DNA of 64,000 nucleotides from Thalassotalea euphylliae. Lineage in GTDB: Bacteria; Pseudomonadota; Gammaproteobacteria; Enterobacterales; Alteromonadaceae. Below are positions 8,677 through 42,894 of this stretch, piece by piece (the stretch's first letter is position 1; each line of letters opens with the position of its first letter). Made by a program: the position numbers and the translations under genes. The stretch spans positions 124,001 to 188,000 of the forward strand of contig NZ_QUOV01000001.1 of the NCBI RefSeq assembly GCF_003390395.1, in the 5' to 3' direction. The notes beneath the pieces were generated by a model, which did no database searches, was not told where the DNA came from, and saw only the letters and a program-made list of their open reading frames with translations.

Positions 8677-9921
8677 ATGAACAAGCCACCGCTACTATTT
8701 TTGTGTCACCGCATTCCATTCCCACCAAATAAAGGGGATAAAATTCGCTCGTTTAATATTTTACAAATGTTGAACAAGCATTATGACGTTTACCTCGGCT
8801 GCTTTATTGATGACCCTTACGATGAGCAGTACGTTGATGAACTTAAAAAGCACTGTCATCAGCTGTTTTACCGCAATCAGAACAAACTCGTCGCTAAAAT
8901 TAAAGGCATGACGGCTTTTCTTACTGGCAAACCAATAACCTTGCCATACTACTATGACCGAGAAATGGCGAAGTGGTGTCAAGAGGTCGCTGATAGACAT
9001 GCCATTGAAAAAGTATTTGTCTATTCATCGTCAATGGCACAATACTGCGAAACAGCGCAATTTAATCAATGCCAACGGGTGATAGACTTTGTCGATGTCG
9101 ACTCTGATAAATGGCGTCAGTATGCAGAAAATAGGTCAGGGCTAGCAAAATTCATATTCCAGCGCGAGTTTAAAACACTGGCGCGATACGAAGACAAAGT
9201 TTGCCTGCAATTTGATGCCTCGCTCTTTGTTTCGCCTGATGAAGCAAAGTTATTTAGAGCACGCCAGCAAGTTACTGCACAGGCAAAGGTACAAGGCATA
9301 TTAAATGGTGTCGATATTGGATTTTTTAATCCAAATGCTTCACTTGCGCCGGAAAATAAAGTGCCTGATGGCCCTTTTATCAGTTTTACGGGCGCTATGG
9401 ATTACTGGGCAAATGTTGATGCCGTGCTTTGGTTTGCAGAAAACGTGTGGCCGATTGTTAAAAAAAATATCCCGTCACTTAGTTTTGTGATTGCTGGGGG
9501 TAACCCAACCAATCAGATTAAATCATTAGCAACACAGCCAGATGTTATTGTCACTGGTCGGGTTGAGGATATACGCCCCTACATAACTCAGGCTGCGTGT
9601 ATTGTCGCACCGCTGCGCATTGCCCGTGGTATTCAAAACAAAGTGCTTGAAGCCATGTCACTGGATAAACCAGTAGTGTGTACTTCAATGGCAATGGAAG
9701 GGATCAATGCTCCGCATCATCGATATTGTCAGGTGCATGATGAACCGGAAGCCTTTGCTGAGGCGGTAATCGAGTTGGTTAACTCGACACAAGTTTCAGC
9801 AACTACCGAACTTGTCACTGAAAATCGAGCATGGATAAAAGAACATTTTACTTGGCAGGCAACCCTAGCACCGCTTGCTAAGCTTTATCAAATAGAATCT
9901 TCAGAGGTTACAAGCCAATGA
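8677..9921 (+). CDS. TIGR03087 family PEP-CTERM/XrtA system glycosyltransferase
   Basis: 414-residue GT-B glycosyltransferase. The N-terminal PPLLFLCHRIPFPPNKGDKIRS is the hallmark of this family. The donor-binding half contains SFTGAMDYWANVDAV and APLRIARGIQNKVLEAMSL, including the GxxxKxxEAM element common in GT4-like enzymes. It probably adds one sugar to the undecaprenyl-linked repeat unit on the cytoplasmic face. It lies 5 bp after the FemAB gene and overlaps the exosortase gene by 4 bp (ATGA), which indicates one transcript and coupled translation. Confidence 0.93.
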   Translation: MNKPPLLFLCHRIPFPPNKGDKIRSFNILQMLNKHYDVYLGCFIDDPYDEQYVDELKKHCHQLFYRNQNKLVAKIKGMTAFLTGKPITLPYYYDREMAKWCQEVADRHAIEKVFVYSSSMAQYCETAQFNQCQRVIDFVDVDSDKWRQYAENRSGLAKFIFQREFKTLARYEDKVCLQFDASLFVSPDEAKLFRARQQVTAQAKVQGILNGVDIGFFNPNASLAPENKVPDGPFISFTGAMDYWANVDAVLWFAENVWPIVKKNIPSLSFVIAGGNPTNQIKSLATQPDVIVTGRVEDIRPYITQAACIVAPLRIARGIQNKVLEAMSLDKPVVCTSMAMEGINAPHHRYCQVHDEPEAFAEAVIELVNSTQVSATTELVTENRAWIKEHFTWQATLAPLAKLYQIESSEVTSQ

Positions 9922-11351
9922 TGGCGATCAACAGTCGACAGTTTATCTTGATGTTTGCTGTCCTGATAGCAGCTTGGATGCTGGTATTTTGGGATGGTAT
10001 TACGGGCATGGAAGCAATTTGGCGTCGTTCTGACACATTTGCGCATGGTTATTTTATTTTACCGATAGTGATCTGGTTGTTGCATCGCGATCGTGCTTAT
10101 TTACAATCCGCTAAAGTCCAGTCAACTTGGTTACCTTTGCCACTTTTAGCTGCCAGTAGTTTTGTTTGGCTCTTTGCATATGCAGCTGACATCAATGTGT
10201 TGAGTCAGCTGGCTGCCGTGACCGCGCTCATATTTCTAGTTTGGATGTTAATAGGTAATCAGTTGGCATGGCGATACAAGTTTCCATTGGCCTACTTACT
10301 CTTTGCTGTGCCTATGGGGGAAAACTTAATTCCTAGCCTACAAGATATTACGGCGTGGATAACAGTTTTCTTGCTTAAAGTACACGGCATACCCGTATTT
10401 CGAGATGGCTGGTATATCCAGATTCCAACTGGCATGTTCGAAGTGGCTGTGGCTTGTTCTGGTATTCGTTACCTCATTGCTTCTATGGCGGTTGGCACCT
10501 TATACGCTCACTTAACTTATCGTTCGTTCAAAAAGCAGCTATTGTTTATTGTTTTCGCTTTCTTACTGCCAATTTTAGCCAATGGCGTGCGTGCATACTT
10601 GATTGTCATTATCGCCCACTACTCAGACATGAAGTATGCAACTGGGGCTGATCATTTAGTTTATGGTTGGATATTCTTTGGTTTTGTCATCATGCTAATG
10701 TTTTGGGTTGGGGGAAAGTTTGCCGACCCTGAACCCAAGACGGAGCTTTATAGCGATAGCGAATCGACGAAATCTAAGGGGCATTACAACAAGTTCTGGG
10801 TGAGTACCTCAGCCTGTTTATTGCTGATGGCGACCTTGTTTGTTGAGCATAATATTAATGCCGTTGAGTTACCTGAAAGTGCAGATACAGTCATTCAAAT
10901 GCCTGACTCGAATTGGGGTGTTAGTTTTACCCAGCCGCTGCAATCTAACGTTCAGCGTGAGAGCAATGGTATAGAGTTGTTTTTTGCTCGCTATGGCAAT
11001 AAGCAAAGTGAAGGCGAGTTAGTGAGTTTTGCCAATAAGCTTTATGATGCTGAACGCTGGACTGTGGTTGATCGAGTTACCAAAATTGACAATGGGCAAA
11101 CCTACCGTTACTTACTGTTAAGAGATATTCAAGGTCAAGAAAGGACGGTTTTATACTGGTATCAAATTGGTGAAAGAACATTTGTCAGCCCTTCAATTGT
11201 GAAGTTATATCAGGCATTTGCGCTACTTACCGGTCAAGTTAAATTCGCTAGTTTTGTTGCAGCGTCTAGTTTAAATACAGGCCAAGATGATTTAGCAGAG
11301 CGGTTATTATTAAATGCAATGTTAGGTATTAGCCAAGTGCCTAAAAATTAA
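9918..11351 (+). CDS. xrtA: Exosortase A fused to an EpsI domain
   Basis: 477-residue polytopic membrane transpeptidase. About eight hydrophobic segments lie in residues 1-275. The exosortase triad is visible: Cys180 in VACSGIRYL, Arg225 in ANGVRAYLI and His246 in GADHLVYGW. From about residue 290 a single membrane segment precedes a periplasmic EpsI-type domain (ending in QVKFASFVAASSLNT). Exosortase A cleaves and anchors PEP-CTERM proteins, probably to the polysaccharide or a lipid. The fusion with EpsI is usual for XrtA. No candidate substrate is encoded in this window. Translation is coupled to the glycosyltransferase gene upstream. Confidence 0.95.
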   Translation: MMAINSRQFILMFAVLIAAWMLVFWDGITGMEAIWRRSDTFAHGYFILPIVIWLLHRDRAYLQSAKVQSTWLPLPLLAASSFVWLFAYAADINVLSQLAAVTALIFLVWMLIGNQLAWRYKFPLAYLLFAVPMGENLIPSLQDITAWITVFLLKVHGIPVFRDGWYIQIPTGMFEVAVACSGIRYLIASMAVGTLYAHLTYRSFKKQLLFIVFAFLLPILANGVRAYLIVIIAHYSDMKYATGADHLVYGWIFFGFVIMLMFWVGGKFADPEPKTELYSDSESTKSKGHYNKFWVSTSACLLLMATLFVEHNINAVELPESADTVIQMPDSNWGVSFTQPLQSNVQRESNGIELFFARYGNKQSEGELVSFANKLYDAERWTVVDRVTKIDNGQTYRYLLLRDIQGQERTVLYWYQIGERTFVSPSIVKLYQAFALLTGQVKFASFVAASSLNTGQDDLAERLLLNAMLGISQVPKN

Positions 11352-11444
11352 TAAACCTAGCTAAATCGCTAATTTAACAACTAGTACCTAATTTACTTTT
11401 AGAGGAAAAGTTGGTGCTTAAGCCCAATTATTAAAGTGGTGACA

Positions 11445-13049
11445 ATGGAAAAACAATATTTGAAGTTAGCCGTCTATACAGGGGATATATATAGTCATAG
11501 TACTGTAAAGCCTATTTATCATATTGCTAAACACTTTCCTGATTCGAAAATTAAAGTCTTTGTTAATGTACCCCATGTTCCCTTTAGGAAAGTTATTAAG
11601 GCACAAATAAAAAATTTGAAGTTAAATGGTTTTTTTCGAGTACTCGAAATAAGTGGTATTTTGTGGGAACGAGGCACTAATAAATTAGTTGAGTTATTTA
11701 CATCAAATAGAAAGCAAAGCAATGGAAGATTGATTGATTACTTTCAAGAAGTATTCGAAAGCCCTAATATTGAGATTGAGTTCATTCGTAATATAAACGA
11801 GCTTGGACCTTCTCTTATTTCAGAATTCTCTCCTGATATAGGCTTATCAATTGCAGCACCAATCTTGACTGAAAGCGTTTTATCCATTGCTACATTAGGA
11901 AATTTAAATGTACATAAAGGTATGCTGCCAAAATATAGAGGCATGCCACCAGCGTTTTGGGAAATTTATCATGGAGAAAAGGTAGTTGGTTGCACGATAC
12001 ATGAAATGACCGCAGAGCTTGATGGAGGCAATATTTTATTGGAAGAAGAAATTCCTACCCATAAATGGTCTACACCCAAAGGGCTTCAAGTCCAGTTAGA
12101 TGAGATGGCAACAAAAATGTACCCTGAAGCTATTTCAATGTACTTGGCTGGCCATAAAGGAAAAGAGCAATTTGGGGAGAAGAATACTTTCACAAAACCT
12201 AGCTTGAAAGCTTATCGTCAATTAATAAACAAACAGTCTGCCAATCTAAATATTCACAAATTAAAGTACATTATTAAACAATTGGTTCTGATTAGTATTC
12301 TCATACCTTATGGAAAGTTGATTGCACTCTATAGAGGGCTAACAGGAAAGCAAATTACTACGGTACTTCTATATCACCGAGTAAATGATTTCCAGCGTGA
12401 CAACCTTACTGTTGGTGTTGAGCAATTCAATTGCCAAATGGAGTATATAAGTAAATCATTGAATGTTATTGGTATTGAAGATTTGCAGGCTAATAAAGTA
12501 GATCGTTTCAGCTTAAAACCAAATGTCGCAATAACATTTGATGATGGATATCTCGATAATTTTCTTAATGCTTTCCCTATTTGCCAAAAAAATAAAGTAT
12601 GTGCTTCATTTTATGTCTCAACTGAAATGGTTGATAAAGGAAAACCATTTCCACATGATCAAAAGCATAATCTTATATTTGCAAATATGACTTGGGATAA
12701 TTTAAAAGAAATGAAGCTTGCTGGTATGCATATTGGTTCTCACACGATGAATCATGTAAGAAGCAGTACAACCCAACCATGTGAATTAAAGAGAGAGTTT
12801 AGTTATTCAAAAATGGTATTGGAGCAACAATTGAATGAACCTGTTGATTCACTAGCCTACCCTTTCGGTGGAAAAAGTGATTTTAACAAAGAGTGTTTAG
12901 AGTTAGCTAAAGAGGCTGGCTATAAAACTGTTTTATCAGCATATGGTGGGGTAAACAGACAGCTAGATTTGTTTAACATCAAGAGAAAAGGGATCGATTG
13001 GACATTCTCACATTGGGCGTTCGTTTCACAAATCTATGACTGGAAATAA
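11445..13049 (+). CDS. Formyltransferase-polysaccharide deacetylase fusion protein
   Basis: 534 residues from ATG 11445 (GTG 11436 is possible). Residues 1 to about 235 form a formyl_trans_N-like domain with the catalytic Asn-His-Asp set: N155 and H157 in LNVHKGMLPKYRG, D193 in AELDGGNIL. Residues about 300-534 form a NodB-type deacetylase, with YHRVN, the FDDG motif (D366, D367) and HxxxH in IGSHTMNHV (H433, H437). One protein could therefore deacetylate an amino sugar and formylate the amine, though the donor and order are inference. The gene is clearly more AT-rich than its neighbours, suggesting separate acquisition. It sits 93 bp after exosortase A. Confidence 0.85.
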   Translation: MEKQYLKLAVYTGDIYSHSTVKPIYHIAKHFPDSKIKVFVNVPHVPFRKVIKAQIKNLKLNGFFRVLEISGILWERGTNKLVELFTSNRKQSNGRLIDYFQEVFESPNIEIEFIRNINELGPSLISEFSPDIGLSIAAPILTESVLSIATLGNLNVHKGMLPKYRGMPPAFWEIYHGEKVVGCTIHEMTAELDGGNILLEEEIPTHKWSTPKGLQVQLDEMATKMYPEAISMYLAGHKGKEQFGEKNTFTKPSLKAYRQLINKQSANLNIHKLKYIIKQLVLISILIPYGKLIALYRGLTGKQITTVLLYHRVNDFQRDNLTVGVEQFNCQMEYISKSLNVIGIEDLQANKVDRFSLKPNVAITFDDGYLDNFLNAFPICQKNKVCASFYVSTEMVDKGKPFPHDQKHNLIFANMTWDNLKEMKLAGMHIGSHTMNHVRSSTTQPCELKREFSYSKMVLEQQLNEPVDSLAYPFGGKSDFNKECLELAKEAGYKTVLSAYGGVNRQLDLFNIKRKGIDWTFSHWAFVSQIYDWK

Positions 13050-30447: not shown

Positions 30448-32172
30448 GTGGAAGAAATCAAAGCAAGGAGCTCATTCAGTCATTCTTTATCAAATTCGAT
30501 GAATGTGAAGCTAACCTCTGATAAGCCAATGTCGCAAGTTGCGAACGATCAATTCTTTGTCGCTTTATTAGGAAATATTGATAATACCAGTGCTCAAGAT
30601 GTTTTAGATAAACTAGACAATGGGGAAATATTATCTGGCTTTTATCAACAACTAAGAGGTAGTTTTGTCTTAGTTATCGCCAATCAGCACGATTCAACAC
30701 TGACTTTAGTGAATGACTTTATTGGTCAACTGCCTTGTTACTATGCTGAGCATGGCGGAGAAATCACAATTTCTCACTCGTTAAAGTTACTAAAAAAGGC
30801 TGTTCACGAGACATTGGAAATTAGCGAACAGGCAATTTTCAATTACATGTATTTTCATTGTATTCCCTCTCCTACAACGATTTACAAAAAGGTATATAAA
30901 CTTGAGCCGAGTAAAGCGGTAACCTTTGATAAGGCGTTATCGTTATCAACTAATGTTCTTTATGCCCCTGAGTTTTCGAATAATATTCAAGATAAGCAAA
31001 GCTTGTATAGCGAATGCTTGGATATTATTGAAACAACGGTGAAACAGCAGACTTCTGACAATTGCGGTGCATTCTTAAGCGGCGGTTTAGACAGTTCGAC
31101 AGTCTCAGGTATGCTGGCGAAACATCAAACACCCGCGAAAACCTTCTCTATCGGCTTTGAAGCAGAAGGCTACGATGAAACACCTTATGCGAAAATCACG
31201 GCGAATCATTTCAAAACGCAACATGAGGTACTTTATTTGCAGCCTGAACAAGCCGCAGAAGCCTTTGTCACAGTGGCACAATATTTTGATGAACCCTTTG
31301 GTAACTCGTCTTCTATGGCAGCCTATTTTTGTGCCAAATTTGCTAAACAGCATAGCGTGAATACCTTACTAGCGGGTGATGGTGGTGACGAGTTATTTGC
31401 TGGCAACGAACGTTACGCGAAACAAAAACAATTTGAACTGTATTATAAATTACCGTCGCCAATTCGCAGTTTAATGAATACCACATTAAACAATAAGGTA
31501 ATGGCGGGGATACCAGGCATTAGCAAGGCATCAAGCTATGTGCGTCAAGCTGAGATTAAGCTGCCAGCACGATTACAGAGCTATAACTTTGTCAATATTG
31601 TCGGTTTAGAGGAAATGTTTACATCTACGTTTCTATCAAAAGTTGATGTTAACCAACCAATCGAACAATTAGTTCAGCGATATCAAGAGTCTAGCGGTGG
31701 GCACCCTGTAGATAATATGTTGTATCTGGATTGGAAATTTACACTCGCTGATAATGATTTAATCAAAGTAAATAAAATGTGTGAACTCGCTGACGTTGAA
31801 GTTAAGTTCCCACTGTTGGACAAGGCGCTGGTCGACTTCAGCTGCAAGGTATCGGCAGACGTAAAATTGCCCGGCTACGAACTGAGAGATTTTTATAAGC
31901 AGGCATGTCGAGGCTTTTTAGCCGATGAGACACTTGATAAAAGTAAACATGGCTTTGGTTTGCCGTTTGGAGTCTGGTTAAAAGAAAATGAAACGTTAAA
32001 AAATATTGCGTTGGATGCATTACAGCAGTTTAAAGCTAGAAATATTATTTCGGAAAATTTGATTGATAAAGCGCTTAATGCACACAATAGCGTGCATACG
32101 GGCTATTATGGCGAGCTTATTTGGATTATGGTGGTGTTAGAACTTTGGCTTCAAGGTAACGAGAGTAGTTAA
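30448..32172 (+). CDS. Asparagine synthase-like protein with a degenerate glutaminase domain
   Basis: 574 residues, GTG start with GAGG 7 bp upstream. The first 190 residues keep the shape of the glutaminase domain (FFVALLGNID, RGSFVLVIANQ) but have no N-terminal Met-Cys and no replacement cysteine at the start, so glutamine hydrolysis is unlikely. The synthetase half is intact: pyrophosphatase loop FLSGGLDSSTVSG (S211-S216 region), AGDGGDELFAGNERY and HGFGLPFGVWLKE. It probably activates a carboxylate by AMP and accepts an amine other than glutamine-derived ammonia. It is longer than, and distinct from, the amidotransferase at 14238. Confidence 0.87.
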   Translation: MEEIKARSSFSHSLSNSMNVKLTSDKPMSQVANDQFFVALLGNIDNTSAQDVLDKLDNGEILSGFYQQLRGSFVLVIANQHDSTLTLVNDFIGQLPCYYAEHGGEITISHSLKLLKKAVHETLEISEQAIFNYMYFHCIPSPTTIYKKVYKLEPSKAVTFDKALSLSTNVLYAPEFSNNIQDKQSLYSECLDIIETTVKQQTSDNCGAFLSGGLDSSTVSGMLAKHQTPAKTFSIGFEAEGYDETPYAKITANHFKTQHEVLYLQPEQAAEAFVTVAQYFDEPFGNSSSMAAYFCAKFAKQHSVNTLLAGDGGDELFAGNERYAKQKQFELYYKLPSPIRSLMNTTLNNKVMAGIPGISKASSYVRQAEIKLPARLQSYNFVNIVGLEEMFTSTFLSKVDVNQPIEQLVQRYQESSGGHPVDNMLYLDWKFTLADNDLIKVNKMCELADVEVKFPLLDKALVDFSCKVSADVKLPGYELRDFYKQACRGFLADETLDKSKHGFGLPFGVWLKENETLKNIALDALQQFKARNIISENLIDKALNAHNSVHTGYYGELIWIMVVLELWLQGNESS

Positions 32173-34266: not shown

Positions 34267-35298
34267 ATGGATGCAATTAAGTGGCAATTATTGCCTGTTT
34301 CAGAATTTCATACGATTTATGCTCAGTGGGATGACTTGAATCAAAGTACTCTTAATCAAGCGGTTTTATCTGCGCTTTTCGTGCAAAGTTTAATAAATAC
34401 GTTTGCAAAGCAGCCGCTATATATTCTGTGTAAGTATGAGAGTGGTTGTTTGACGTTTGCTGGTATTTTTGAGCAACTCTCAAACTTTCGTTGGGCTATC
34501 TTTCAAACCTCTCAAGGGCCTTTGGGCGCAATATTATCTAAAAGTAATACGCTAAACCGCCGCCTTTTTGCTGAAATTAATCAACAGCTGCCGGGAACAC
34601 AACTGTTGTTTGATCTAACTCAGCTAGACAGTGCATGGTTTGAACAAAGTGAAGACGTAGAATGCTTGCCATATATAACGACAGGATCGTTGAAAGTACC
34701 TGAGGATTTTGACGCTTATTTTGCCAGTTTAAGTAAAAATACACGCCAGAATATCAATAAAGCGAAAAATCGCCTTAACAGAGAAGGCGTGACTATTGAG
34801 TTGTCAATAGTGACCAAGCCTGAGCAGATAAAAACCTATATTACGCATTATGGAGAGCTGGAAAGCAAAGGTTGGAAAAGTTCTCTTGGTACAGCCGTCA
34901 ATGTCGACAACGAACAAGGTACGTTTTATGTTGATATGATGACATCTTTTGCCGAGCAAGGTTTAGCTCAGATTTGGTGTTACAAATTTAACGACGACAT
35001 TGTTGCAGTTGATCTGTGTATTGTACATGGCGATACCGTCACTATTTTGAAAACAACGTTTGACGAAAGCTTTGCACGTTATTCACCCGCATTGCTTATG
35101 AAAGTGGATGCCTATAAAGCAATGTCCGAACAAGGTAAAATCAAACGTATAGAATATTACGGTAAAGTAAGGGACTGGCATCGAAGGTTGACTTGTGATG
35201 AAAGAGCATTGTTTCATGTAACGTGGGCAAAAAACCAAGCACTTTATCGTTCATTGAATTGGCTGAAAAATAAAATCAGTAAATCAACTTCAGATTAA
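34267..35298 (+). CDS. GNAT/FemAB-like acyltransferase family protein
   Basis: 343 residues. The segment YFASLSKNTRQNINKAKNRL (about 155-175) is the hallmark of the BioF2/CelD-like double-GNAT family, and YYGKVRDWHRRLTCDERALF closes the second half. It has no signal or membrane segment. With an acyl carrier protein encoded 13 bp downstream, transfer of an acyl or aminoacyl group from a carrier thioester to an amine is a natural guess. It belongs to a different branch from the XrtA FemAB protein at 7589. Confidence 0.8.
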   Translation: MDAIKWQLLPVSEFHTIYAQWDDLNQSTLNQAVLSALFVQSLINTFAKQPLYILCKYESGCLTFAGIFEQLSNFRWAIFQTSQGPLGAILSKSNTLNRRLFAEINQQLPGTQLLFDLTQLDSAWFEQSEDVECLPYITTGSLKVPEDFDAYFASLSKNTRQNINKAKNRLNREGVTIELSIVTKPEQIKTYITHYGELESKGWKSSLGTAVNVDNEQGTFYVDMMTSFAEQGLAQIWCYKFNDDIVAVDLCIVHGDTVTILKTTFDESFARYSPALLMKVDAYKAMSEQGKIKRIEYYGKVRDWHRRLTCDERALFHVTWAKNQALYRSLNWLKNKISKSTSD

Positions 35299-35559: not shown

Positions 35560-36360
35560 ATGTCGATTCAAGGGCATTTTATTGCGTCCACTAAAGGGCG
35601 CATTTTTGTTAGTCAGTTTGGCAATTCAAAGCGCGATGTCGCTGTGTTGTGCTTACCGTCGATCGCGGAGGAACTGAACCTTTCTCGTGCGGTACTGGCA
35701 AAACAATGCCAAGCGTTTGCTCAGCATGGGCTCGATAGTTTTATTCTCGATTACTTTGGCACTGGCGACAGTGAAGGTGAATTCGAAGAAAGCTCCTTTA
35801 ATAGTTGGTTTGGAGATGTTGTATCGGTAGGCGAATGGCTACAGAGCTTAGGCTACCAAAAGCTTATTGTGCTCGGTGTTAGGGTCGGTGCCTTATTGCT
35901 TGGTGTGAATCAACAGAAGTTACACGCCCAGCTACCAATTCTAGGTCAAATTTTTTGGAAACCTATTACCAGTGGTAAGGTTTTCGCCAACCAATTAATA
36001 CGGATAAAACAAGCCAACCAAATGATGGGTAATAGCTCTGATAAGGTCAACTGGCGTAATGAAATACTTGCAGGTAATGATACAGAAATTGCTGGGTACG
36101 TAATCACAAAAAACTTTATTGAAGAAATTGAAGCTGCCGTTATCTCGGCGGCTATAGAGTGGCAAAGCCCAGTCAATTGGTTAGAGCTGGCAACACAAAA
36201 GATAACGCCTGCAACGAGAAAGTTTGCAGAGGCAAGCGACGTTATTACCGTGCATACCTTGCATACCCCCGCTTTTTGGCAAGTACCAGAGGTTTTCGAC
36301 TTACCAGAACTTTCTGCACTGGGTGTCACCATAACCCATAAGTTGCTGGGTGAATACTAG
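35560..36360 (+). CDS. Exosortase A system-associated hydrolase 2 (TIGR03101-like)
   Basis: 266-residue alpha/beta-hydrolase fold protein. SFILDYFGTGDSEGEFEESS (about 60-79) is the family signature. The position of the nucleophile elbow reads LGVRVGALLLG, so an arginine (R108) stands where serine is expected; ordinary esterase activity is therefore doubtful. XrtA loci commonly encode this protein next to hydrolase 1 and an acyl carrier protein, as here. A binding or partner role in acyl transfer is possible. Translation is linked to the carrier gene 2 bp upstream. Confidence 0.85.
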   Translation: MSIQGHFIASTKGRIFVSQFGNSKRDVAVLCLPSIAEELNLSRAVLAKQCQAFAQHGLDSFILDYFGTGDSEGEFEESSFNSWFGDVVSVGEWLQSLGYQKLIVLGVRVGALLLGVNQQKLHAQLPILGQIFWKPITSGKVFANQLIRIKQANQMMGNSSDKVNWRNEILAGNDTEIAGYVITKNFIEEIEAAVISAAIEWQSPVNWLELATQKITPATRKFAEASDVITVHTLHTPAFWQVPEVFDLPELSALGVTITHKLLGEY

Positions 36361-37242: not shown

Positions 37243-40200
37243 ATGAAAAAACTAATAGCGATCCTGTATGTGATTATAGCTTATGGCTCGCTTTACCCTT
37301 TTTTATTTTCTTTAGAGGAACTGTCTGCGAGTTCTTTAATATGGCTGAATATCAACATACCAAGTATTGGAGACGTACTTGGTAATTTATTACTTTTTTT
37401 ACCTCTAGGGGTAGCGTATAGACTCAGTGCACTGAAACAGGGATTGCATTTATCGCAAGTAGACACATGGTTGAGGCCATTTGGAATTGTGCTGTTTTTT
37501 GCTTTCATTCTGCAAGTACTCCAAATCGGAATTGCAGAGAGGGATCCCAACTTAATTGATGTATTATTTAACAGTATTGGATTCGCTCTTGGCTTTATTG
37601 CGATAAATTTTTTCGATAGAGTTAAAGTCTCGTTAGAAAACCCAATAGCTATGTTGCCCATAGCTATTGTTATCGTTTATTTACTTTCACAGCTTGCCCC
37701 ATTTGTACCAAGTATAGACTTTCAAGCCTTTAAGCACAGTATCAAACCCCTCTTGGTTCCACCCAGTGCATCTAATATTTTGTTAGTTTTATTCAATACA
37801 GTCACATGGCTTGTGATGTTTAGGTTATTAAGCTTTTGGCGGCCCGTTCCACTAACTTTTTTTGTATTCGGCTATTTCGGGTTGCTAGTTGCAAAAGTTG
37901 TTATCTATCAGAATAGCGTAACATGGGCGGTTATTATTGCCCCCTCAATAGGGTATTTGATCTTTCGTTTGAGAGATTGGCACGACGATGGAAATCAAAA
38001 ACAGCTTTATGTGTTGTTTCTTGCATCTATCTTTTTCTCAAGTCTTATTAGCGCAGGAAAACCAATACACAATGCGTTCAGTATGTTGCCGTTTCATAGC
38101 TATCTTAGTGGCCAAGTATATGCGGGTGTCTCGACAATTCTTCTAAAAGTCTCGCTATTTTCTGCAGCAATGTGGCTATCGCTTGAGCTCAAATACAGCT
38201 TGCATCGTCAAGCTTATGTACTGGCAGGTTTAGTTTTAATAACTGAGTGTTCGCAAATATTTATTTCAGGTCGGACGTTTGATATTGGCGATGTGGTATT
38301 GGTCGGTGTTACTTTTTTATTGGTTAGACATATTGGTGATTTACTTGCCAGTATGCTAGGTAACGTAACCGAACATTATAGATCGCAAACACAAGATAGG
38401 GTCCCAAAAACAGCAATTTCTTGTAGCAAAGAAAAAAACACTTCTGTGTTTTTAACAAGCTTATTGGTAGGTGGCTTTATGCTGCTTTACATGGCTATTA
38501 GCCTTGTCCTGTTGTTGCCAAGCATTCCATATAACGTTAGAGAGTTATTTGAAAATAACGGTTCAATACTAGATGTTCTATTCTTCTACGTGTTTCTCTT
38601 ATGTATATTTGGTGGTGGGTATTGGTCTGCTAGTACAATTAAGGAAGACTGTGAGCTAAGAGTTTCAGAGTTCATTGGGACTCAGGTGAAAATTCTCCTC
38701 ATTGCCTTTATTGCAATCACGCTAGCGATTTCTGAAGAAAGCCTACAAGACATAATCGGGGCCTCAGTTTACGCAAGAGATATATTGGCAATGCGTGCAG
38801 AATCTAGCTGGCTGGCTTCCCTATTAAAAATACTTAGTCTGTCGATGACTGCTAACTTTGTCAGATATGTCGAGTACTTTGTGCGCTTTTCTGCGTTTAT
38901 TGGTTTTATTTATTTTCCATTGCTTTTGACTCTCTTTTGGGTGAGAAAAAAGCAGGCTATAACAAATAAATTTAAAGTGACAATTGTTTCCTCAGGGGCA
39001 ATTGTATTTTGCTATATCACGGTTTTTATTAATGCTTCGACTGATAACCTTACCGAACTTATCGAAAGTCCTATAGCAATAAGTACTGCATTTATTTCGC
39101 TGTCTATATTAGCTGGGTTGGCTTACTTGATCGTGTCAGTAAAGGGTACGGCTCGGCTAATTTGGTTTCCTTTGATTATTCTGAGCTCAATAGCTAGCTC
39201 ATGGTACACACTTAACTATGGGCTTGAGCCAGTTATTGTGAAATATGGCCAAACCTTCTCGGCTGCTGATTTTCTTCTTGGTCCAGATAGGGAGAATCAG
39301 CTTAGCCAATCAGAGCTGGTGATACGTTGGTCAGTGTTGGTTCTAGGGCTTATCTTTGTGACATGCTTTGCATGTACGGTAAGTAGAGCAGCATTAAACT
39401 TGAAAGGACATTTTAATACAGCTTTTCTACCCAAAGAATCCTCCGTCTTATACAGTGCTGCTGGTGTTTTTTGTCTGTATTTATTGTATCGAATATTTGG
39501 TGAGCCTTTTCATATTCAAACAATTAGTTCAATGCTAAATCCTCCTGCTCAAGAAGTTGTAAAAGTCCAGCTGCAGAAACTGACTAATCTAAAACATGCT
39601 CCGGGGGTTATTACACTAGATGGTAAACCGGTTAAAGATTTCCAGACAGCGTTAAAAACAGCTAGAGCTTTTAGCGAGATTAATATTGGCAGAGGTCTAT
39701 ACAAAGCATCGGGTGTGGTGACAGCTAATAATGTCAAGATTACTGCCGAGCCTGGCGCAGTTATTTTTGGTTCTGCCAGTCAAGGTAAGGGAGCAATTGT
39801 TGCAAAGGGCAACAATTTGATAATTGATGGACTTGAATGTCATTCAATATCAGTTCCTTCAAATAATGGAGTCTGCGTTCGTCTTGAAGGGCGAGGTCTT
39901 ACTTTAAATAATGTTTATTTTCATCATGCACAAGGTGGTTTGTTAGGCTCGCCAAAGGGAGGGGATATCGTTATCCAGAATAGTCGTTTTGAATACATGG
40001 GACATGGTAGCTTTTTTCATGGCGTATATACGATGGCTAAAACACGGCTATTGATTAAGAACTCGTCTTTTTTAAATAACCAAACTGGCGGCCATGAAAT
40101 AAAGTCTCGCTCTTACTACACCGAGATATTAGAGTCTGTTATTGGAAGCAGTTTAACAAGAGATAGCAGGCTCATCGACATCCCGAATGGAGGACAAGTT

Positions 40201-40497
40201 AGGATCGAGAATAGTGTTTTAGTCGAAGGCGCCTATAGTGAAAACCATGACCTACTAAGTTGGGGAGTTGAGGGGGTATCTCATGACGAAGGCAGTATTG
40301 TCATTAGGAACAACATATTTATTGCTGACAAGAGTTATGCTCGCTTAATAGCAATGAAGGAGGAACCTCAAAAATTAGATATCTCAGACAACATTATTGT
40401 TGGAGGTATAGAAGGAGCCCCTAAGGCTTTCAATATATTCTTTGAAGATCGAGCTGATTTGGGAATCAAACCTGCACCGTTTATTCCGAATTTATAA
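37243..40497 (+). CDS. Large membrane protein with two VanZ-like segments and a C-terminal beta-helix
   Basis: 1084 residues. The first 125 look VanZ-like: VLGNLLLFLPLGVAYRL from residue 46 and LQVLQIGIAERDPNLIDVLF from about 90. A second VanZ-like unit at about 270-375 has PFHSYL and ITECSQIFISGRTFDIGDVV. About eight more hydrophobic segments fill 400-770. From about 780 the protein is soluble and repetitive, with short strands and turns such as NNVKITAEPGAVIFG, LIIDGLECHS, LTLNNVYFHHA and DIVIQNSRFEYMG, which match a right-handed parallel beta-helix like those of polysaccharide lyases and epimerases. The helix is probably periplasmic and may bind or modify the polymer. No known family covers this whole layout. 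Confidence 0.78.
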   Translation: MKKLIAILYVIIAYGSLYPFLFSLEELSASSLIWLNINIPSIGDVLGNLLLFLPLGVAYRLSALKQGLHLSQVDTWLRPFGIVLFFAFILQVLQIGIAERDPNLIDVLFNSIGFALGFIAINFFDRVKVSLENPIAMLPIAIVIVYLLSQLAPFVPSIDFQAFKHSIKPLLVPPSASNILLVLFNTVTWLVMFRLLSFWRPVPLTFFVFGYFGLLVAKVVIYQNSVTWAVIIAPSIGYLIFRLRDWHDDGNQKQLYVLFLASIFFSSLISAGKPIHNAFSMLPFHSYLSGQVYAGVSTILLKVSLFSAAMWLSLELKYSLHRQAYVLAGLVLITECSQIFISGRTFDIGDVVLVGVTFLLVRHIGDLLASMLGNVTEHYRSQTQDRVPKTAISCSKEKNTSVFLTSLLVGGFMLLYMAISLVLLLPSIPYNVRELFENNGSILDVLFFYVFLLCIFGGGYWSASTIKEDCELRVSEFIGTQVKILLIAFIAITLAISEESLQDIIGASVYARDILAMRAESSWLASLLKILSLSMTANFVRYVEYFVRFSAFIGFIYFPLLLTLFWVRKKQAITNKFKVTIVSSGAIVFCYITVFINASTDNLTELIESPIAISTAFISLSILAGLAYLIVSVKGTARLIWFPLIILSSIASSWYTLNYGLEPVIVKYGQTFSAADFLLGPDRENQLSQSELVIRWSVLVLGLIFVTCFACTVSRAALNLKGHFNTAFLPKESSVLYSAAGVFCLYLLYRIFGEPFHIQTISSMLNPPAQEVVKVQLQKLTNLKHAPGVITLDGKPVKDFQTALKTARAFSEINIGRGLYKASGVVTANNVKITAEPGAVIFGSASQGKGAIVAKGNNLIIDGLECHSISVPSNNGVCVRLEGRGLTLNNVYFHHAQGGLLGSPKGGDIVIQNSRFEYMGHGSFFHGVYTMAKTRLLIKNSSFLNNQTGGHEIKSRSYYTEILESVIGSSLTRDSRLIDIPNGGQVRIENSVLVEGAYSENHDLLSWGVEGVSHDEGSIVIRNNIFIADKSYARLIAMKEEPQKLDISDNIIVGGIEGAPKAFNIFFEDRADLGIKPAPFIPNL

Positions 40498-40586: not shown

Positions 40587-41861
40587 ATGCCTAATGGTGA
40601 TATTAGAATTGCAATTATTGGCTTAGGTTATGTTGGCCTGCCATTGGCGGTAGAGTTTGGCAAACAGTACCAAACTATTGGCTTTGATATTCATCAACAG
40701 CGAGTTGACGAGCTAAATGATGGTTTAGACCGCACTAATGAAGTTGACGCTGAAGAATTGAAGCAGGCTAGCAAGCTGGTATGTACTGCAGACAAAACGC
40801 TGCTCAAAGATTGTGATTTTTATATTGTTACTGTACCAACCCCTATTGATAAACATCGCCAACCGGACTTAACTCCCCTGCGCAAAGCATCAGAAATGCT
40901 TGGCAGCGTGATTGGTAAAGGGGCAACGGTGGTCTACGAATCAACCGTTTATCCGGGGGCAACGGAAGAAGACTGCATTCCGATTATTGAAAAAATCTCT
41001 GGTTTAACGCTGAACCAGGATTTCTTTGCTGGTTATTCCCCTGAGCGCATTAATCCTGGTGATAAAACTCACCGCTTACCGACAATTTTAAAAGTCACTT
41101 CGGGCTCAACTCCTGAAATTACTGACAAAGTAGATGCGCTCTATGCATCAATTATCACGGCAGGCACCTATAAAGCCTCGTCTATTAAAGTGGCTGAAGC
41201 TGCTAAAGTCATTGAGAACACGCAGCGTGACGTTAATATCGCGTTAATTAACGAGCTATCGGTGATATTCAATAAACTTGATATTGATACGTTAGAGGTG
41301 TTGGAGGCCGCAGGCACCAAGTGGAACTTTTTACCGTTTCGTCCGGGCTTAGTCGGTGGGCACTGCATTGGCGTTGACCCTTATTACCTAACACACAAAG
41401 CGCAATCAGTGGGCTATCACCCTGAAATGATTCTTGCAGGGCGTCGCCTAAATGATGGCATGGCGCACTATGTGGTTTCACAGCTTATCAAAGGTATGTT
41501 GAAAAAGCGTATTCAAGTAGAACAGGCTCATGTGTTGGTGATGGGCTTAACCTTCAAAGAGAATTGTCCTGATCTTCGCAATACCAAAGTGATTGATATT
41601 GTTGAGGAACTTAAAGAGTACAACGTAAATGTTGATGTTGTTGACCCGCTATGTGCTTGTGAAGAAGCGCAAGAAGAATACGGTATTAAGCTTACTGCCG
41701 AGCCTAAAAAAGGTGATTATGACGCGGTGATTTTGGCGGTAGCGCACGATGAGTTTAAAGCGATGGGGGCTGAGCAAATTCATGCGTTAGGTAAAGCGAC
41801 ACATGTCTTATATGACTTAAAGTGTGTGCTTCCCAAAGACAAAGTTGATATGCGTCTATAG
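40587..41861 (+). CDS. tviB: UDP-N-acetylhexosamine dehydrogenase (TviB/WbpO-type)
   Basis: 424-residue UDP-sugar dehydrogenase. The NAD site is [18 protein letters not shown] at residues 7-24. The catalytic cysteine is C260 in [15 protein letters not shown], and the conserved lysine region is [17 protein letters not shown]. The C-terminal domain has [17 protein letters not shown]. The closest named enzymes oxidise UDP-GlcNAc or UDP-GalNAc to the uronic acid, and the adjacent epimerase supports this (Vi antigen type TviB/TviC). AAGGAAGAGAGC precedes the start. Confidence 0.9.
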
Positions 41862-41871
41862 AGCAGAGTGG

Positions 41872-42894
41872 ATGAATAAGTACGAACAAATATGCCAAGA
41901 GTTGAAAGCGCAGCCTAAAACTTGGTTAATTACAGGTGTTGCTGGCTTTATTGGTTCTAACCTTTTAGAAACCTTACTAAAACTAGATCAACGAGTTGTT
42001 GGTCTTGATAACTTTGCCACCGGCTATCAAAAAAATCTGGAAGAAGTGAAACAACTCGTTTCATCAGAGCAATGGCAGGCGTTTACGTTTGTAGAGGGTG
42101 ATATTCGCGATGTTAGCACCTGTTCACAAGTATGCGATGGCGTAGACTATGTTTTACACCAAGCAGCTTTAGGCTCTGTGCCGCGCTCGCTGGCAGACCC
42201 TATTACCTCTAATGCCGCCAATGTTACAGGCTTTTTAAATATGCTTGAGGCTGCAAAGCAAGCCAATGTTGCGAGCTTTACTTATGCCGCCAGCAGTTCT
42301 ACTTATGGTGATCACCCGGCATTGCCCAAAGTGGAGGATAACATTGGCAGTCCACTTTCCCCTTATGCGGTAACAAAATACGTTAATGAGCTCTACGCGA
42401 ATGTCTATGCAAGAGCTTATGACTTTAATTGTATTGGTTTGCGGTACTTCAATGTGTTCGGTCGCCGACAAGATCCTGATGGCGCGTATGCGGCGGTAAT
42501 TCCCAAATGGACTGCTGCTATGATTAAAGGCGACACTGTGTTTATCAATGGTGATGGCGAAACCAGCCGTGACTTTTGTTATATCGACAATACCGTACAA
42601 ATGAATATTCTAGCTGCCACCGCGCCCGCTGAAGCGAAAAACGCGGTATATAATGTCGCACTTGGCGATAGAACGACGCTCAACGAGCTTTATGCGTCTA
42701 TCAAGCATGCCTTATCAGATAATAGTGTTCAGATTGAAACAGAGCCTGAATATCGAGATTTTAGAGCGGGCGATGTTAGACACTCGCAAGCTGATGTTTC
42801 TAAAGCAAAGTCAGCACTTGGTTACGATCCAAGCCATCGCATTCAACAAGGTATTCTTGAAGCTATGCCTTGGTATTTGGCACATTCAGGTTGA
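41872..42894 (+). CDS. tviC: UDP-N-acetylglucosamine 4-epimerase family protein (TviC/WbpP-type)
   Basis: 340 residues from ATG 41872, 10 bp after the dehydrogenase; an upstream in-frame start overlaps that gene and is rejected. It is an extended SDR enzyme with the NAD loop GVAGFIGSN at residues 22-30 and catalytic Tyr165/Lys169 in [34 protein letters not shown] and the long N-terminal extension before the Rossmann loop are typical of WbpP/TviC. It probably interconverts the UDP-GlcNAc/GalNAc or uronate forms made by the neighbour. Confidence 0.9.

What the first reader, a model, noticed from the sequence alone, without database searches (positions are those of the whole stretch)
37243..40497. 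1084-residue VanZ-VanZ-membrane-beta-helix fusion protein
Two VanZ-like units (about residues 1-125 and 270-375), a further block of about eight helices, and a C-terminal beta-helix of about 300 residues are joined in one frame. The beta-helix resembles folds of lyases and epimerases acting on polysaccharides. Between the XrtA module and the uronate genes, it could be a membrane-anchored enzyme or binder that modifies the exported polymer, for example as a C5-epimerase or lyase. The combination is not a layout I know.
Basis: partly seen in the sequence, partly recalled or inferred. Interest (0 to 1): 0.72.

Follow-up and report, generated by a model that had tools for sequence, protein, structure and literature searches.

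The report
Membrane and lyase-like fusion, exosortase locus
A marine bacterium joins a large inner-membrane protein, of a kind seen here almost only in bacteria with exosortase systems, to an outward-facing domain shaped like sugar-polymer-cutting enzymes; it probably processes the slime polymer as it is exported, and some relatives carry different tailoring domains on the same membrane part.

Summary
ORF 37243-40497 encodes 1084 aa: two VanZ-type (Lipocone) units, an unnamed eight-helix membrane block ("mid"), one more TM helix, and a right-handed beta-helix (about 785-1075). It lies in an XrtA locus between hydrolases 2/1 and TviB/TviC. It is a real fusion of modules that also occur apart. 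VanZ-VanZ-mid alone is a widespread ~740-aa protein; no Pfam or NCBIfam family was found for mid. Of 74 genomes carrying mid, 61 have XrtA over cut-off and 72 some match to its model, against 68 and 107 of 323 class genomes. The beta-helix family is also linked to XrtA (16 of 19 genomes), is a neighbouring gene of VanZ-VanZ-mid in 16 of 75 loci, and its conserved polar residues gather on one sheet face. In two same-genus genomes the same slot holds a Chondroitinase_B-like helix and a PL14-like lyase; elsewhere VanZ-VanZ-mid carries a heparinase II/III-like or PHP domain. Best reading: an inner-membrane EPS-processing protein, VanZ unit 1 acting on lipid-linked glycan, the helix a periplasmic lyase or epimerase. 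Catalysis is inferred, not shown. New variant of a known kind; mid is the more novel part.

The parts
37243..40497 (+). 1084-aa VanZ-VanZ-mid-beta-helix fusion protein (P0001)
37282..37620 (+). VanZ unit 1 (residues 14-126); D44, N48, Q91, Q94, R100, D106 and N110 each in at least 108 of the 109 rows with a residue there
   Evidence: motif positions compared with PMC12419801 (passage)
38065..38358 (+). VanZ unit 2 (residues 275-372); keeps ExxQ (E335, Q338) but has V/A/I where unit 1 has N110 (V354), probably inactive
   Evidence: inactivity is inference
38440..39402 (+). mid block (residues 400-720), eight helices; N431, G506, R548, TDN 600-602, E605, W654, K667, Y668, R683, R695, W696 in 111 of 111 rows, E499 and D503 in 109 and 110; no Pfam or NCBIfam family found
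39403..39594 (+). extra TM helix (733-752) and linker that would place the C-terminal domain outside
39595..40467 (+). right-handed beta-helix (about residues 785-1075)
40027..40029 (+). Y929, proposed catalytic residue (33 of 33 rows)
   Evidence: function inferred
40102..40110 (+). K954, S955 and R956; K954 the proposed base (K954 and R956 in 33 of 33 rows)
   Evidence: function inferred
40177..40179 (+). D979 on the next rung (33 of 33 rows)
   Evidence: function inferred
9918..11351 (+). exosortase A (XrtA), 477 aa, model covers residues 12-270
   Evidence: TIGR03109 343.5 bits, cut-off 208
35560..36360 (+). exosortase-system hydrolase 2 (168.3 bits, below its cut-off of 202.75)
   Evidence: TIGR03101
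36360..37199 (+). exosortase-system hydrolase 1 (355.4 bits, cut-off 168.45)
   Evidence: TIGR03100
40587..41861 (+). TviB-like UDP-GlcNAc C-6 dehydrogenase, uronate supply
   Evidence: NF011729 637.1 bits, cut-off 592
41824..42894 (+). TviC-like UDP-GlcNAcA C-4 epimerase (500.4 bits, below its cut-off of 760; true start probably later, match begins at residue 17)
   Evidence: NF011728

Best explanation
The protein is an inner-membrane processing component of an XrtA-linked exopolysaccharide pathway whose polymer, in this organism, probably contains a uronate. VanZ unit 1 and the mid block form a periplasm-facing membrane part that handles the undecaprenyl-linked glycan (release, or transfer to an acceptor). 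The C-terminal beta-helix, held at the outer face of the membrane by one extra TM helix, is a polysaccharide lyase or C5-epimerase that trims or edits the polymer as it emerges. Shown here: architecture, topology signal, modularity, genome and locus association, conserved residues, fold class of the helix. Inferred: lipid-linked substrate, uronate polymer, catalysis by Y929/K954/D979, and the order of events.
Confidence: 0.55

Rival explanations
1. The beta-helix is a carbohydrate-binding sensor or scaffold: it binds the polymer and regulates or positions the VanZ/mid enzyme, without its own catalysis.
For: PMC12419801 (section 25 read) lists beta-helix among extracellular domains fused to VanZ or Skillet-3 and reads them as ligand-binding; other fused tails (LMW phosphatase, PHP) could be regulatory.
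Against: H926, Y929, H951, K954, R956, S975, D979, N1001 and E1010 are in 33 of 33 rows; the helix exists alone, often with a signal peptide or TM anchor (my reading); the same slot or C-terminal position holds lyase-type domains in relatives.
Confidence: 0.25
2. VanZ-VanZ-mid is itself a polysaccharide polymerase or terminal ligase (Wzy/WaaL analogue), and the beta-helix edits its product.
For: In same-genus G005 the slot upstream of a separate beta-helix gene holds a different 754-aa protein that looks multi-TM, and a homologue of that protein is fused to the helix in L082 (E 3e-20); to my eye it resembles Wzy/O-antigen ligases. PMC12419801 (section 19 read) proposes chain extension or terminal release for VanZ.
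Against: The 754-aa protein has no Pfam or NCBIfam match, so the Wzy label is unproven. L082 has both that protein and a mid protein. G003 and G006 have no match to P0001 yet share the core locus.
Confidence: 0.2
3. VanZ-VanZ-mid acts on the protein side of the exosortase system (transfer of lipid or glycan to cleaved PEP-CTERM proteins) and the helix is incidental.
For: Mid follows exosortases in general: 72 of 74 genomes have some match to the XrtA model, 61 of them over cut-off.
Against: Mid is found in only 4 of 323 class genomes while 68 have XrtA over cut-off, so it cannot be a general sorting step; many gene neighbours are EPS-locus genes.
Confidence: 0.1

Closest known systems
VanZ-1 family of the Lipocone superfamily (PF04892; PMC12419801)
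   Same: VanZ unit 1 keeps an Asn at the H2 place (N48) and the D-x3-N of H4 (D106, N110); a duplicated VanZ-1 with an inactive second copy is described there for some betaproteobacterial proteins (passage), which may overlap with this family
   Different: joined to the mid block and a beta-helix; exosortases are not mentioned in that paper's main text (0 occurrences)
PsAly alginate lyase of Paenibacillus FPU-7 (PDB 6kfn; PMC6796002, passages read)
   Different: no significant sequence match; not membrane-fused; residue equivalence is my estimate, and K252 has no counterpart that I could find
RbmB, Vibrio polysaccharide lyase (PDB 9ozl; PMC11637428, passages read)
   Different: studied as a purified protein without a membrane part; different polymer; no XrtA link known to me (recalled)
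AlgG, periplasmic alginate C5-epimerase (PDB 4nk8)
   Same: periplasmic beta-helix; Foldseek E 0.036
   Different: the DPHD motif that I recall for AlgG-type epimerases is absent from P0001; AlgG is not membrane-fused (recalled)
XrtA/PEP-CTERM exopolysaccharide loci (TIGR03109; PMC1569441, passages read)
   Same: core gene set present
   Different: VanZ, lyase, heparinase and beta-helix have 0 occurrences each in that paper's main text

Membership tests
VanZ-like (PF04892) / Lipocone VanZ-1 | Pfam score over the gathering cut-off | tested here: met
   34.8 bits against 30.1
VanZ-like (PF04892) / Lipocone VanZ-1 | conserved Asn in H2 | tested here: met
   N48 in 108 of the 109 rows with a residue; motif from PMC12419801 (passage)
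VanZ-like (PF04892) / Lipocone VanZ-1 | DxDDxxxN in H4 | tested here: inconclusive
   only D106-x3-N110 of the motif is present in unit 1 (109 of 109 rows); unit 2 lacks the Asn
VanZ-like (PF04892) / Lipocone VanZ-1 | activity on a phosphate-linked lipid head group | not testable with these tools
   proposed, not shown, in PMC12419801
Polysaccharide lyases with a right-handed beta-helix (PL6 / PL31-like) | right-handed beta-helix fold | tested here: met
Polysaccharide lyases with a right-handed beta-helix (PL6 / PL31-like) | sequence match to a Pfam lyase model such as PF14592 Chondroitinas_B | tested here: not met
   only VanZ and Beta_helix at E up to 10
Polysaccharide lyases with a right-handed beta-helix (PL6 / PL31-like) | catalytic residues equivalent to PsAly Y184 and K221 | tested here: inconclusive
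   Y929 and K954 invariant and roughly at the right place by the aligned range; no residue-level superposition
Polysaccharide lyases with a right-handed beta-helix (PL6 / PL31-like) | beta-elimination activity | not testable with these tools
   needs enzyme assay
AlgG-type C5-epimerase | DPHD motif (recalled) | tested here: not met
   absent from P0001
XrtA-associated EPS locus component | lies within a locus with XrtA and its marker genes | tested here: met
XrtA-associated EPS locus component | family co-occurs with exosortases beyond background | tested here: met
   72 of 74 against 107 of 323
Wzy polymerase / WaaL ligase | fold or family match of the mid block | tested here: inconclusive
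   no Wzy- or WaaL-type family among the Pfam hits of 30 members; structure searches not informative

The most novel reading that the evidence does not exclude
VanZ-VanZ-mid is an unrecognised membrane enzyme family belonging to exosortase systems, acting at the periplasmic face on lipid-linked exopolysaccharide, perhaps the missing step that releases the polymer or anchors it, and serving as a plug-in platform: lineages fuse different polymer- or phosphate-processing domains to it (beta-helix, heparinase II/III-like, PHP, LMW phosphatase). The window's protein is the version that couples this step to a built-in lyase or epimerase.
Probability: 0.3. Interest if true: 0.82.

Novelty: new variant of a known kind. 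Interest (0 to 1): 0.62.

Why it matters
What happens to the exopolysaccharide of exosortase (XrtA) systems at the inner membrane is, to my knowledge, largely unknown. A conserved membrane block without a family model, seen in this survey almost only in genomes with an exosortase and carrying invariant charged residues on its predicted outer side, gives a defined target. Its fusion partners point to what it handles, and VanZ, for which a chemistry has been proposed but not shown, becomes testable in an EPS setting.

Tried and rejected
Chance or artefact: rejected (12 full-length homologues; 96% identical copy).

Simple VanZ antibiotic-resistance protein: rejected as an explanation; VanZ-A is matched far below its cut-off in the relatives scanned (31.2 bits against 250 for P0045) and the context is EPS.

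PDB sequence searches with P0001 and with the helix profile found no close relative.

Helix homology with the slot helix of G003/G006: only the N-terminal cap aligns, so I use it as an analogous occupant, not as a proven homologue. The G006 pair was not run through Pfam; its helix is 57% identical to that of G003.

L051 looked heparinase-like by eye, but Pfam found only VanZ in it, so it is not counted as such. Sheet labels PB1-PB3 are mine, over residues 848-1056; two PB1 strands were set one to three residues wider than DSSP, which does not change the PB1-plus-neighbour total.

The beta-helix tree (68 rows, 66 different): the 19 fused rows (two pairs identical) lie in a 21-row clade (99/95) with P0136 (separate) and P0135 (from a 1127-bp contig, probably a fragment). 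Before it I dropped the duplicate loci L086, L089, L090 and L093, and the length limit dropped P0143 and P0159; L046b is a long branch of unsure place. The tool counts three label changes, so a single fusion is likely but not proven.

L076 has only the last 156 bases of a mid gene and gave no profile hit, so the architecture counts rest on 74 of the 75 loci, and short contigs make neighbour counts lower bounds.

Literature: exosortase with VanZ, 0 papers; VanZ with PEP-CTERM, 0 papers; VanZ/exopolysaccharide/beta-helix, 242 papers with two of three terms, 20 listed; only CC0, CC BY and CC BY-SA papers are held. Searches were seen as listings with the starts of abstracts, apart from the papers named elsewhere.

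Full report
OBSERVATION. The ORF is real, 37243-40497 on the + strand, 1084 aa. Pfam puts VanZ at 16-124 and Beta_helix at 824-957, both over their cut-offs. The full-length model has a clear beta-helix at about 790-1067. Twelve other proteins share the whole layout at 40-63% identity; the three with an organism name are from two Thalassotalea species and Litorilituus.

ANATOMY. I read about 21 TM helices from the model: four in VanZ unit 1, five between the units, three in unit 2, eight in the mid block (400-720) and one before the beta-helix. Loops that would be inside hold 17 K+R in 91 residues, those outside 11 in 189, which puts the N-terminus inside and the beta-helix outside (helix ends set by me). 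Stand-alone relatives of the helix often begin with a signal peptide or one TM helix, which agrees (my reading). With this topology the nearly invariant residues of VanZ unit 1 and of the mid block lie in outer loops or towards the outer ends of helices, R548 about mid-helix. In 111 family rows other than the window's, N431, G506, R548, T600, D601, N602, E605, W654, K667, Y668, R683, R695 and W696 are in 111 of 111, E499 and D503 in 109 and 110; VanZ unit 1 D106 and N110 are in 109 of the 109 rows with a residue there. Those rows were found by similarity, so they are not an independent sample.

MODULES THAT COME APART. VanZ-VanZ-mid without helix is a large family: 211 proteins at E up to 0.001 with the mid part of P0015, 120 of them listed and none of those with a beta-helix domain; organism names include Nitrosomonas, Variovorax, Desulfobacter and Emcibacter. 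The order can be reversed, mid first (P0043; planctomycete loci L062, L064, L068). In L071 mid and the VanZ pair are separate neighbouring ORFs. With P0001 as query, the VanZ pair alone was found in four of 60 relatives (L006-L009) and the helix alone in three (L003-L005); XrtA is absent from two of those four VanZ-pair genomes, so the pair by itself is not tied to XrtA.

LINK TO EXOSORTASES. A scan of GTDB species genomes gave 75 loci with mid. The genomes behind all 75 (74 genomes) were searched for XrtA: over cut-off in 30 of 31 and 31 of 43; any match in 30 of 31 and 42 of 43. In 323 genomes of the window's class, 68 are over cut-off and 107 have any match, and mid is found in 4, all with XrtA over cut-off (at most 7 candidates per genome scored). 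The converse fails: most XrtA genomes of the sample show no mid, so it is an accessory. Within the flanks of up to 10 kb, neighbours often match the window's XrtA-locus genes (hydrolases 1/2, the second amidotransferase, deacetylase, GNAT, CoA ligase, O-ligase), though many loci show only the VanZ-mid gene.

THE SAME SLOT IN SAME-GENUS GENOMES. Between hydrolase 1 and TviB, G001 has the same fusion. G005 has a sulfotransferase-family gene, a 754-aa protein without a Pfam family, and a separate 329-aa beta-helix. G003 and G006 have, among other genes, a lyase-like gene and a TM-anchored beta-helix directly before TviB; Pfam on the G003 pair gives Polysacc_lyase_14 and Chondroitinas_B. G002 and G004 showed no such slot in the stretches fetched. 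In the same family, G023 has a 784-aa VanZ-mid protein without helix beside hydrolase 1. So in the genomes where the slot could be seen it is filled by a VanZ-mid protein, a beta-helix, or both, next to genes for a uronate sugar.

OTHER CARGO. Long C-terminal tails after mid differ by lineage: heparinase II/III-like in L060, PHP in L047, L050 and L059, low-molecular-weight phosphatase in L020, and short tails that look like ribbon-helix-helix proteins in L012-L016, L053 and L082 (by eye). Tails of periplasmic type (helix, PHP, heparinase-like) hold a further hydrophobic stretch after mid (best 19-residue mean hydropathy 1.66 to 2.56), while the phosphatase and the short tails do not (0.35 to 1.59; L016 is the borderline one), in line with outside and inside placement. 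In L082 the beta-helix is fused instead to a homologue of the 754-aa protein of G005.

MECHANISM. Lipocone work proposes that VanZ enzymes act on flipped, undecaprenyl-linked polysaccharide precursors, releasing or extending chains (PMC12419801, section 19); the same paper lists beta-helix among fused extracellular domains and reads them as ligand-binding (section 25). My reading keeps the first idea for VanZ unit 1 plus mid and departs from the second: strict conservation of a polar face, lyase-type domains at the same slot or C-terminal position, and uronate genes next door favour a lyase or epimerase working on the emerging polymer. Each step of this is inference.

LIMITS. I know of no measured activity for any member. 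The 74 genomes include MAGs and close kin, and the background is one class. Uronate genes are within 25 kb of the helix in 7 of 22 genomes (my reading). The helix is absent from most VanZ-VanZ-mid proteins seen.

VERDICT. Observation confirmed; interpretation partly supported. A new variant of a known kind: a VanZ/Lipocone protein of an exosortase EPS locus with a built-in lyase-like domain. The more novel part is the unnamed mid block and its exchangeable cargo.

Noticed in passing
window 11436-13049: One 537-aa ORF joins a formyltransferase N-domain (142-233) and a polysaccharide deacetylase (361-499), right after XrtA.
   Followed up: no
window 30448-32172: A second XrtA-type amidotransferase matches TIGR03108 only from profile position 117, so the N-terminal glutaminase part seems shortened; similar genes recur at many mid loci.
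   Followed up: no
window 34267-35298: GNAT-like protein whose only NCBIfam hit is BspF, far below cut-off (64.8 of 775 bits); relatives recur at other mid loci, so probably an ordinary EPS-locus gene.
   Followed up: partly
L082:6720-9923: Beta-helix of the same family fused to a different large protein, a homologue of the 754-aa protein of L086:14982-17246.
   Followed up: partly
L096:10312-17187 and L101:72-6951: The slot before TviB in two same-genus genomes holds a TonB-receptor-like gene (by eye), a glucose-dehydrogenase/cytochrome c protein, a PL14-like lyase and a TM-anchored beta-helix.
   Followed up: partly
L012, L013, L014, L015, L016, L053, L082: VanZ-mid or mid proteins with short C-terminal tails that look like DNA-binding ribbon-helix-helix domains, unexpected for an EPS membrane protein (by eye).
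   Followed up: no
L020:9908-12682: VanZ-VanZ-mid fused to a low-molecular-weight tyrosine phosphatase (1.9e-32), a kind that I recall as acting on EPS kinases.
   Followed up: no
L062, L064, L068, L071: Planctomycete loci with mid first or apart from VanZ; L068 and L071 lie near exosortase- and deacetylase-like genes, so the family crosses phyla.
   Followed up: no
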